In this document: one piece after another, positions 20,910 to 22,139 of the stretch | Layout: each line of letters opens with the position of its first letter | Numbering within the stretch: position 1 is the first letter of the stretch | NCBI RefSeq assembly: GCF_003633715.1 | Contig: NZ_RBIE01000006.1 | Location: 1 to 46,100, forward strand | Source of the DNA: Thermovibrio guaymasensis | Lineage (GTDB): Bacteria; Aquificota; Aquificia; Desulfurobacteriales; Desulfurobacteriaceae | Length of the DNA stretch: 46,100 nucleotides | Direction: 5' to 3' | Made by a program: the position numbers and the translations under genes | Notes under the pieces: model-generated | Told to the model about the DNA's origin: nothing | Databases searched by the model: none | Seen by the model: the letters and a program-made list of their open reading frames with translations, nothing else

Positions 20910-21311
20910 TCAAACCCCTTTTATTTCATCATGAACATTAATTTTGAATCCACTTTCTTCAATATGATCGGAACACAATTTCAAGAATAGCTTTGGATCT
21001 AGTCTCCTCTTAGAGAACCACATTGGAGCAAAAAATTGTGTTTTACACCACAACCCATCTCCAATACCTTTATTTGCTTCAGACGCATAACACCAGCCAT
21101 TTAAAACACTATCTCCAACAACTTCTTTTAGTGACTCAAGCATTGCATCTTCAAGATAAATCGGCTTTTCTTGAATATGATTTTTCTTGATGTTAAAGAT
21201 AATTAAATCCTTACATCTATCAAAAAGATCAATTGTGTTTGTCTTAGTCATCTTTTTAGCTAACTCGTGATTCTCTTTAATTTCGATTAACTCTTTTGCA
21301 AAATCTCTCAT
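20910..21311 (-). CDS. Hypothetical protein, first gene after the structured RNA
   Basis: A 133-residue protein with a helical N-terminus (RDFAKELIEIKENHELAKK) and a Trp/Phe-rich centre (GLWCKTQFFAPMWFSKRRLD). No family is recognised. Its own promoter (21339-21367) contains the recurrent early motif, so it is probably expressed early although it sits in the late region. It heads the accessory block 20.9-18.6 kb. Confidence 0.6.
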   Translation of the reverse strand: MRDFAKELIEIKENHELAKKMTKTNTIDLFDRCKDLIIFNIKKNHIQEKPIYLEDAMLESLKEVVGDSVLNGWCYASEANKGIGDGLWCKTQFFAPMWFSKRRLDPKLFLKLCSDHIEESGFKINVHDEIKGV

Positions 21312-21390: not shown

Positions 21391-21414
21391 TAAAATAAAA
21401 CCACCGGAAGGTGG
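21391..21414 (-). terminator. Intrinsic terminator of the structured RNA
   Basis: On the minus strand CCACC, loop TTCC, GGTGG, then TTTTATTTTA. It directly follows the closing helix of the non-coding region, and the next gene has its own promoter beyond it. Confidence 0.85.
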
Positions 21415-21849
21415 CTCTATTGGCTTAACTAACACACTTTGCATTTTGCCTTATGCGCGAAAACCTTTTGTGTTTAAGGGCTAGCGATTGCACTTTCATT
21501 GATTCGCTTCGCAAGACGTAATATCCCTTTCGGGGTTGTGCTTTCGTCTGAATTTAAACTTAGGTGAAGTGAACAGGGAATAGTCCTACTATTACCATGT
21601 CTCGCCCTACTCTGTTAGAGACTTTAAATGCTCCTTCGGGGTCGTAGCTATTCACTTCTCTAAATTTGCTAGTCTTTCCTAGCAGTCAAACTTAACTTTC
21701 TATCTTCGCCAGTTGGCCTATGCGTACTCATTAAGTTGTTTATTGATCGGCAACGTGCGAATAGTTGCGGCTCTTGCCATAAACTCCGAAAAGCAAAGTT
21801 AATTGCTATTCATCTATGCTTACTGTGTCGCCCACAGATTCGACCAATA
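21415..21849 (-). ncRNA. Candidate large structured non-coding RNA (about 455 nt with terminator)
   Basis: No credible gene is found on either strand across this stretch. On the minus strand the segment begins at the predicted start of a promoter and ends in a terminator. TATTGG at the 5' end (21844-21849) pairs with CCAATA at the 3' end (21418-21423). Between them are many helices: CTGTG/CACAG, GCAAC/GTTGC, a GCTAG/CTAGC hairpin (TTTG/CAAA extension), GAAGTGAA/TTCACTTC enclosing GTCTC/GAGAC and AATAG/CTATT, AGACG/CGTCT, AGCGA/TCGCT, and CTTAA-ACACA/TGTGT-TTAAG. Size and setting recall ornate phage RNAs such as ROOL or GOLLD, but I cannot match it to either. Confidence 0.72.
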
Positions 21850-21854
21850 ATCAA

Positions 21855-21882
21855 ATAATACCAAACCAAACTAAAAATACAA
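21855..21882 (-). promoter_or_regulatory. Promoter of the structured RNA
   Basis: On the minus strand TTGTAT (21877-21882), 16 bp and TATTAT (21855-21860). The expected start, 6-8 nt downstream of the -10 box, falls at the first base of the closing helix. Confidence 0.6.
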
Positions 21883-21911: not shown

Positions 21912-22139
21912 TTACTCATCAATATCAATACCAGTTAAATTAAAGAACCTGATTTGAACCTTGCTTATATTCTTAATAAGAACCTCTTTTTCGCTGTCTG
22001 GTTCTGATTTTACAAGTTTATCAAAATCATTATATTTCAATATATCACCAAACATATTGACCAGTTCATCATTCCCTAGCTCAATCACGGATATTGAGAT
22101 AAGTTTACTATCAAGATAAATATTTAATCCTAGCTTCAT
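21912..22139 (-). CDS. Small hypothetical protein
   Basis: A 75-residue acidic protein (MKLGLNIYLDSKLISISVIE) with a beta-rich start and a C-terminal strand (KVQIRFFNLTGID). It lies between the head morphogenesis gene and the structured RNA promoter. No family recognised. Confidence 0.55.
   Translation of the reverse strand: MKLGLNIYLDSKLISISVIELGNDELVNMFGDILKYNDFDKLVKSEPDSEKEVLIKNISKVQIRFFNLTGIDIDE

What the first reader, a model, noticed from the sequence alone, without database searches (positions are those of the whole stretch)
21391..21882. Large structured non-coding RNA with its own promoter and terminator
Seen: no credible gene in about 600 bp; a minus-strand promoter (TTGTAT-16-TATTAT), a terminator (CCACC-TTCC-GGTGG-TTTTATTTT), and TATTGG/CCAATA pairing its two ends so that the transcript would begin at the closing helix. 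At least eight more helices lie inside, one of them an 8-bp long-range helix (GAAGTGAA/TTCACTTC) holding two smaller hairpins. Known: phages encode ornate RNAs of 400-800 nt such as ROOL and GOLLD, and phi29 has a packaging RNA. Inference: a roughly 455-nt multi-branched RNA gene beside the terminase-portal cluster, possibly a new class or a diverged known one.
Basis: partly seen in the sequence, partly recalled or inferred. Interest (0 to 1): 0.88.

Follow-up and report, generated by a model that had tools for sequence, protein, structure and literature searches.

The report
Swappable tRNA-like phage RNA cassettes
Next to its head genes this Acinetobacter phage carries an RNA-only locus built from several separate folded RNA pieces that unrelated phages swap like cartridges; the pieces resemble tRNAs whose business end has been replaced by ever-changing sequence, which points to an unrecognised phage RNA arsenal, though its function has not been tested.

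Summary
The structured RNA is real, but it is not one ornate molecule. Window 21391-21849(-) is the local version of a mosaic RNA locus found after the head-morphogenesis gene of Obolenskvirus phages. It has a conserved promoter, 3-5 self-contained modules and a terminator. No Rfam family matches.

Module A (21741-21849) is a covariation-supported scaffold: a closing helix plus two hairpins with complementary loops, around a hypervariable insert (about 23 insert families). The same scaffold occurs in unrelated Friunavirus podoviruses, beside an integrase (phage Alexa), and as a stand-alone ~150-nt gene. Modules reassort: 20 loci show 13 A inserts, 12 linkers, 9 B interiors and 4 3' modules. 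At this locus relatives carry a permuted tmRNA, a tRNA with a two-base anticodon, or tRNA-like domains.

A hairpin inside the window RNA (UGACnGC-stem-GAAAGW-stem-GCAA) is widespread in viral contigs. In 67 of 183 cases a tRNA fold starts just after it (controls 12/783). Of those 67, 41 are not callable as tRNAs and mostly have an enlarged, variable middle.

Best reading: a phage cassette array of tRNA-like RNAs with hypervariable anticodon domains, probably aimed at host RNA-targeting defences. The fold and mosaicism are shown; transcription and function are inferred. The packaging-RNA and GOLLD/ROOL ideas are not supported.

The parts
21877..21882 (-). -35 element TTGTAT of the locus promoter
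   Evidence: Exact position; conserved above module A in AP22, Cato, RM_A2, QH4, IME-Ap7, BUCT628, L097 while the spacer changes; below threshold of a simple sigma-70 scan
21855..21860 (-). -10 element TATTAT; predicted transcript start falls just before or at the first strand of module A
   Evidence: comparative conservation; start site inferred
21741..21849 (-). Module A: scaffold RNA. Closing helix 21841-21849/21741-21749, hairpin 1 21823-21837 (loop GGCGA), hairpin 2 21750-21768 (loop UAUUCGCAC), loops able to kiss GCGA/UCGC
   Evidence: Covariation: 8 pairs with changes on both sides, 19 such cells, 0/500 shuffles; fold z = -3.55; same scaffold in Obolenskvirus, Friunavirus, Alexa, L097, L444
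21769..21822 (-). Hypervariable insert of module A (54 nt here; 30-154 nt in relatives)
   Evidence: About 23 unrelated insert families; identical inserts shared by a myovirus (Abp95) and a podovirus (P2)
21689..21737 (-). Linker module closed by AACTTAAT/GTTAAGTT
   Evidence: Predicted helix; 12 linker alleles in 20 loci
21666..21688 (-). Separator hairpin UGACUGC-UAG-GAAAGA-CUA-GCAA
   Evidence: In viral contigs the free stem positions are complementary in 104/115 (3 nt) and 90/104 (2 nt) matches; followed by a tRNA fold in 67/183 versus 12/783 controls
21557..21664 (-). Module B: ~16-bp closing helix (21651-21664 with 21557-21573) around a variable interior (21574-21650)
   Evidence: 9 interior alleles in 20 loci; a tRNA lies inside this helix in IME-Ap7; compensatory pairs in L010
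21415..21556 (-). 3' module C (AGACG..CGUCU helix, AUCAAUGAAAGUGCAA); replaced in other phages by a tRNA-like module D or module E
   Evidence: 94-97% identical in AP22, fThrA; diverged copy with compensatory stem (UCUCG/CGAGA) in Ab15; fold alone is not better than shuffles, z = -0.5
21391..21414 (-). Intrinsic terminator CCACC-UUCC-GGUGG-U-rich tail
   Evidence: present with sequence variation in relatives; annotated as a terminator in phage fThrA

Best explanation
The locus is a cassette array of small structured phage RNAs expressed as one transcript from its own promoter to its own terminator. Each cassette is a helix-closed domain, several of them tRNA-shaped. Module A is read here as a tRNA-like elbow: an acceptor-like helix, a 5-bp T-arm-like hairpin flush with it, and a D-arm-like hairpin whose loop kisses the T-arm-like loop, with a hypervariable domain where a tRNA has its anticodon arm. 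Separator hairpins mark the 5' edge of tRNA-like units. The transcript is probably cut into units by host tRNA-processing enzymes such as RNase P. The variable domains most likely act as decoys or substitutes against host enzymes that attack tRNAs or other RNAs during infection; selection by changing host defences and swapping between co-infecting phages would explain the hypervariability and mosaicism. Shown: structured modules, covariation, mosaicism, sharing between unrelated phages, tRNA, tmRNA and tRNA-like occupants. Inferred: transcription, processing, kissing contact, tRNA-like shape of module A, anti-defence role.
For: Module A covariation: 95.8% of cells paired, 8 pairs and 19 cells changed on both sides, 0/500 shuffles, sliding controls 26-45% paired. 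Kissing pairs GCGA/UCGC kept in 20/20 although hairpin 1 and hairpin 2 stems change by compensation in L006, L123 and L444. Closing helix in the predicted MFE of 28/28 module-A RNAs, hairpin 2 in 23, hairpin 1 in 21. Reassortment: 13 x 12 x 9 x 4 alleles in 20 loci. The same 57-nt insert in Obolenskvirus Abp95 and Friunavirus P2, 1 mismatch in fThrA. Occupants: permuted tmRNA, 123.9 bits, tag ANDNVFGAKTLAA, in BUCT628; tRNA, 45.3 bits, two-base anticodon, inside module B of IME-Ap7. Friunavirus slot with a ~20-bp helix holding module A, another hairpin (P1) or a T-arm-bearing domain (D2). Separator hairpin followed at +2/+3 by a tRNA fold in 67/183 versus 12/783, 41 of them not callable as tRNAs. 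Stand-alone promoter-module A-terminator in L097. Literature precedent: phage tRNAs restore growth against retron-Eco7 and PrrC170 (PMC11555353) and are proposed to evade tRNA-targeting defences (PMC10264068, abstract).
Against: No transcript data. The phiAbp1 transcriptome paper has no mention of intergenic or non-coding RNA. The window's own alleles of modules B and C show no T-arm, and module C alone folds no better than shuffles, so the tRNA-like label rests on module A topology and on relatives. Most separator hairpins (116/183) are not followed by a recognisable tRNA fold; some stand before ribosome-binding sites or terminators. Hypervariability also fits neutral drift with recombination at conserved ends. 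No defence target is identified.
Confidence: 0.42

Rival explanations
1. One large ornate RNA (GOLLD/ROOL kind) whose domains fold together, perhaps into an oligomer or cage, with variable peripheral regions.
For: GOLLD and ROOL also sit near tRNA islands and have variable linkers that can hold tRNAs (PMC12286853); Ab15 has GOLLD close to copies of modules B and C; whole-region fold z = -3.6.
Against: No match to either model; modules are exchanged one by one and module A occurs alone; supported helices are local, and the proposed end-to-end helix does not covary.
Confidence: 0.15
2. A recombination hot spot or mobile DNA cassette system: the conserved flanking hairpins are DNA sites for strand exchange, and the RNA folding is a by-product.
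For: Conserved ends with swapped interiors; module A next to an integrase in Alexa; paired ends of ~20 bp in Friunavirus.
Against: G-U pairs and compensatory changes in short stems, a conserved promoter and terminator, orientation along the upstream gene in every annotated locus examined, functional RNA occupants such as a tmRNA.
Confidence: 0.13
3. Base-pairing regulatory RNAs: module A is a stabilising scaffold that presents a variable antisense guide against host or phage messages.
For: Conserved scaffold with an exchangeable 30-154 nt domain and a stand-alone sRNA-like gene with promoter and terminator (L097).
Against: Inserts are often themselves structured (window insert is paired in the MFE); complementarity to targets was not tested; tRNA and tmRNA occupants are not explained.
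Confidence: 0.12
4. RNA-processing or readthrough element of the late operon (RNase III site, attenuator or antitermination signal).
For: Friunavirus copies lie inside the late operon in a ~20-bp helix without an evident promoter of their own.
Against: Obolenskvirus and L097 copies have their own promoter and terminator; a processing site would not need about 23 different interiors.
Confidence: 0.1
5. Packaging RNA (phi29 pRNA analogue).
For: Near terminase and portal in Obolenskvirus and next to the portal in L097.
Against: The phage has ordinary small and large terminase genes; module A is elsewhere in Friunavirus and Alexa; content is hypervariable.
Confidence: 0.02

Closest known systems
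GOLLD RNA (RF02032) and ROOL RNA
   Same: Large phage RNA loci of unknown function near tRNA islands, variable regions that may hold tRNAs (PMC12286853); GOLLD lies close to copies of modules B and C in phage Ab15
   Different: No sequence or model match; here the domains are small, separately closed and exchanged one by one; the scaffold module also stands alone
Phage tRNA arrays and anti-defence phage tRNAs (T5 tRNA-Tyr against retron-Eco7, tRNA-Lys against PrrC170)
   Same: tRNA folds carried by phages; some occupants are recognisable tRNAs; the shared separator hairpin lies directly before phage tRNAs
   Different: Anticodon arm replaced by hypervariable domains; most units after the hairpin are not callable as tRNAs
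tmRNA (RF00023), permuted tmRNA (RF04321)
   Same: A permuted tmRNA occupies this locus in BUCT628
   Different: The window has no tmRNA; none was called there
Phage T4 stable RNAs of unknown function (species 1 and 2, from memory)
   Same: Non-tRNA stable RNAs encoded among phage tRNAs
   Different: Not compared here; no hypervariable cassette exchange known to me

Membership tests
GOLLD | Match to the conserved 3' domain (RF02032) | tested here: not met
   No hit in the window; positive control Ab15 scores 218.9 bits
ROOL | Match to the Rfam ROOL model | tested here: not met
   No hit at gathering score nor with E-value up to 10
ROOL | Forms a homo-oligomeric RNA cage | not testable with these tools
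   needs native mass or cryo-EM
tRNA | Canonical cloverleaf with anticodon (ARAGORN, RF00005) | tested here: not met
   No tRNA in the window
tRNA-like RNA | Acceptor-like helix with a 5-bp T-arm-like hairpin flush on its 3' strand and a D-arm-like hairpin | tested here: met
   Module A helices 1, 2 and 4 supported by covariation or conservation; calling this arrangement tRNA-like is an inference
tRNA-like RNA | D-loop/T-loop contact | tested here: inconclusive
   GCGA/UCGC complementary in 20/20 but almost invariant, so no covariation
tRNA-like RNA | Recognised by RNase P or aminoacyl-tRNA synthetases | not testable with these tools
   needs in vitro assays
tmRNA | tRNA-like domain plus tag reading frame | tested here: not met
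   Absent in the window, present in BUCT628
phi29 packaging RNA | Restricted to phi29-like packaging motors and conserved in position | tested here: not met
   Ordinary TerS and TerL; module in T7-like phages and hypervariable
Group I intron | Catalytic core (Rfam model), interrupts a gene | tested here: not met
   No match; intergenic

The most novel reading that the evidence does not exclude
Phages of very different families share a pool of small tRNA-shaped RNAs whose anticodon arm is replaced by a hypervariable domain, marked at the 5' edge by a common hairpin and traded between dedicated genomic slots. This would be an RNA counterpart of protein anti-defence islands, present across viral contigs and invisible to current tRNA and Rfam annotation.
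Probability: 0.4. Interest if true: 0.92.

Novelty: new variant of a known kind. Interest (0 to 1): 0.8.

Why it matters
Large phage RNAs of unknown function are a long-standing puzzle. Here the RNA locus falls apart into small exchangeable units, some of them true tRNAs, a tmRNA or tRNA-like folds. That makes function testable allele by allele, and in small phages of a well-studied host. The hairpin that precedes such units gives a search key: with it, tRNA-like RNAs that ARAGORN does not call, usually with an enlarged variable middle, were found in viral contigs. If they are anti-defence RNAs, a whole layer of phage-host conflict has been missed by annotation.

Tried and rejected
Rfam search of the window and of the region with relaxed threshold: only chance hits. 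Bacterial genomes and plasmids: 5 pattern hits in 257 Gb without the 5' half of module A, none in plasmids, so no prophage or plasmid home was found. First 5' motif pattern in IMG/VR was mis-spaced and gave chance matches. The whole-transcript closing helix TATTGG/CCAATA was rejected because the local helix is the one that covaries. Vibrio and Erwinia phage hits in the first BLAST that cover only the terminator were rejected. The Cellulophaga hit, 27 nt at E = 0.04, was at first taken for chance and then accepted, because it is the separator hairpin beside a tRNA-Cys. Papers: nothing found on Acinetobacter phage structured RNAs, on this hairpin, or on tRNAs without anticodon in phages in the open library; subscription literature was not searchable. 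Module B and linker covariation could not be tested well because alleles are too uniform.

Full report
Setting. The window is a 46.1-kb phage genome, the same sequence as IMG/VR contig IMGVR_UViG_2756170387_000001, with small and large terminase, portal, head morphogenesis, protease and major head genes on the minus strand. Its closest named relatives are Obolenskvirus phages of Acinetobacter such as AP22. The flagged region lies between a 75-aa ORF (21912-22139) just after the head-morphogenesis gene and a 133-aa ORF (20910-21311).

Observation. The region has no minus-strand ORF of 40 aa or more and folds better than 100/100 shuffles, z = -3.6. No Rfam family matches at gathering score in the whole window, and relaxed thresholds on the region give chance matches only. 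The terminator is present. The promoter hexamers are weak by consensus, but they recur upstream of the same RNA in many phages while the spacer changes. Its end-to-end helix TATTGG/CCAATA does not: the 5' strand belongs to a local helix.

Module A. Comparison with relatives shows a scaffold U-GAUCGAAUC-UGUGGGCGACACAG ... GCAACUAUUCGCACGUUGC-CGAUCA around an insert of 30-154 nt with no common sequence: about 23 families. With the insert removed, 20 distinct scaffolds align without gaps. The closing helix and the hairpins keep 95.8% of cells paired, with 8 pairs and 19 cells changed on both sides, 0/500 shuffles, and sliding controls at 26-45%. Examples are Friunavirus AGAUAUGAUC/GAUCAUAUC for the closing helix, L444 CCGUA/UACGG for hairpin 1, and L444 GCAAG/CUUGC for hairpin 2. 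The loops contain complementary GCGA and UCGC in all 20 (one as a G-U variant). Hairpin 2 is 5 bp and runs directly into the 3' strand of the closing helix, hairpin 1 follows the 5' strand after three bases, and the loops can kiss. This is the topology of a tRNA elbow with the insert at the place of the anticodon arm. That reading is mine; the pairs are measured.

Where module A occurs. It is at this place in Obolenskvirus; between capsid and tail tubular genes of Friunavirus (phiAB1, pB3074 and others); right after an integrase gene in phage Alexa; and in contig L097 as promoter, module A and terminator only, next to a portal gene. The 57-nt insert of Obolenskvirus Abp95 is identical to that of Friunavirus P2 and nearly so in fThrA. 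Module A was not found in 257 Gb of bacterial genomes with the pattern used (5 hits, all without the 5' half), nor in plasmids.

Mosaic. In 20 Obolenskvirus loci four slots could be delimited: A insert (13 alleles), linker (12), module B interior (9) and 3' module (4). They occur in many combinations. The flanking head-morphogenesis protein stays 69-100% identical in these relatives. Occupants include a permuted tmRNA in BUCT628 (RF04321, 123.9 bits; ARAGORN tag ANDNVFGAKTLAA), a tRNA with a two-base anticodon inside module B of IME-Ap7, and a tRNA-like module D with matching 7-bp acceptor strands and a T-arm in Cato, RM_A2 and L012 (read by eye; not called by ARAGORN or Rfam). In phage Ab15 (102 kb) copies of modules B and C lie beside 11 tRNAs and a true GOLLD RNA. 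In Friunavirus and Daemvirus a long (~20-bp) helix is a slot that holds module A, another hairpin (P1), a T-arm domain (D2) or another sequence (Acibel007).

Separator hairpin. The window hairpin UGACUGC-UAG-GAAAGA-CUA-GCAA (21666-21688) stands between modules in many relatives, sometimes twice. The free arms are fully complementary in 104 of 115 and 90 of 104 matches, where chance would give about 5% and 14%. In 28 of 190 cases an ARAGORN tRNA starts within 8 nt after the hairpin. With a looser test (T-arm followed at once by the acceptor complement) 67 of 183 have a tRNA fold starting mostly 2-3 nt after GCAA, against 12 of 783 shifted controls. Forty-one of these are not callable as tRNAs. 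They are 60-185 nt, mostly 100-125 against 64-93 for nearly all callable ones, typically with a tRNA-Leu-like D-arm, a T-arm and acceptor, and an unrelated middle. Another 116 hairpins precede other sequences, including terminators and ribosome-binding sites, so the hairpin is not exclusive to tRNA-like units.

Mechanism. Measured: structure, mosaicism, exchange between unrelated phages, tRNA, tmRNA and tRNA-like occupants. Inferred: one transcript, cut by tRNA-processing enzymes into units, acting on host RNA-targeting enzymes or as substitutes. Precedent is that phage tRNAs restore growth against retron-Eco7 and PrrC170 (PMC11555353), the proposal that phage tRNAs evade tRNA-targeting defences by anticodon-loop mutations (PMC10264068, abstract), and that Septu cuts the variable loop of tRNA-Tyr (PMC13096335, abstract). 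Large phage RNAs can be the most abundant transcripts, as in ICP1 (PMC7567579). I put about 0.9 on a real structured RNA locus, 0.85 on exchangeable modules, 0.6 on a tRNA-like nature of module A, and 0.3-0.4 on an anti-defence role.

Limits. There are no expression data. The window's own modules B and C show no T-arm and the fold of module C alone is unremarkable. The literature search covered open-access papers only.

Noticed in passing
L251 (MZ593728.1, phage BUCT628) 1420-1753: A permuted tmRNA with tag ANDNVFGAKTLAA sits between module A and module B of the homologous locus; the record does not annotate it.
   Followed up: partly
L043 (PP763259.1, phage Ab15) 2600-4700: GOLLD RNA (218.9 bits) and 11 tRNAs together with copies of modules B and C; the record annotates small ORFs in this stretch.
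   Followed up: partly
L262, L265, L270, L291, L294, L299, L305, L319, L363, L431, L456 (IMG/VR contigs): RNAs with tRNA-Leu-like D-arm, T-arm and acceptor (often AGTCAGG..CCTGACT) but a hypervariable middle and no callable anticodon, each directly after the separator hairpin.
   Followed up: partly
L286, L293, L307, L360, L375, L376, L377: Another recurrent RNA-like region: the separator hairpin followed by a terminator-like hairpin and several GGAAAGACCAAC-type hairpins.
   Followed up: no
L389, L398, L411, L424: The separator hairpin lies inside an outer GGGCC/GGCCC helix shortly upstream of the ribosome-binding site and start of a gene beginning MSFNV, possibly a translational control element.
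   Followed up: no
L250 (OR791279.1) 1552-1624 and L010 1278-1359: tRNA folds for which ARAGORN finds only a two-base anticodon, next to module B and separator copies.
   Followed up: partly
whole window (G000:C6): The window is an Acinetobacter-type phage genome in a 1.62-Mb, 99.98% complete assembly; its relatives are mostly 1.3-1.9 Mb and none of 40 tested has the RNA, so the contig is probably contamination or a co-sequenced phage rather than a phage of that species.
   Followed up: partly
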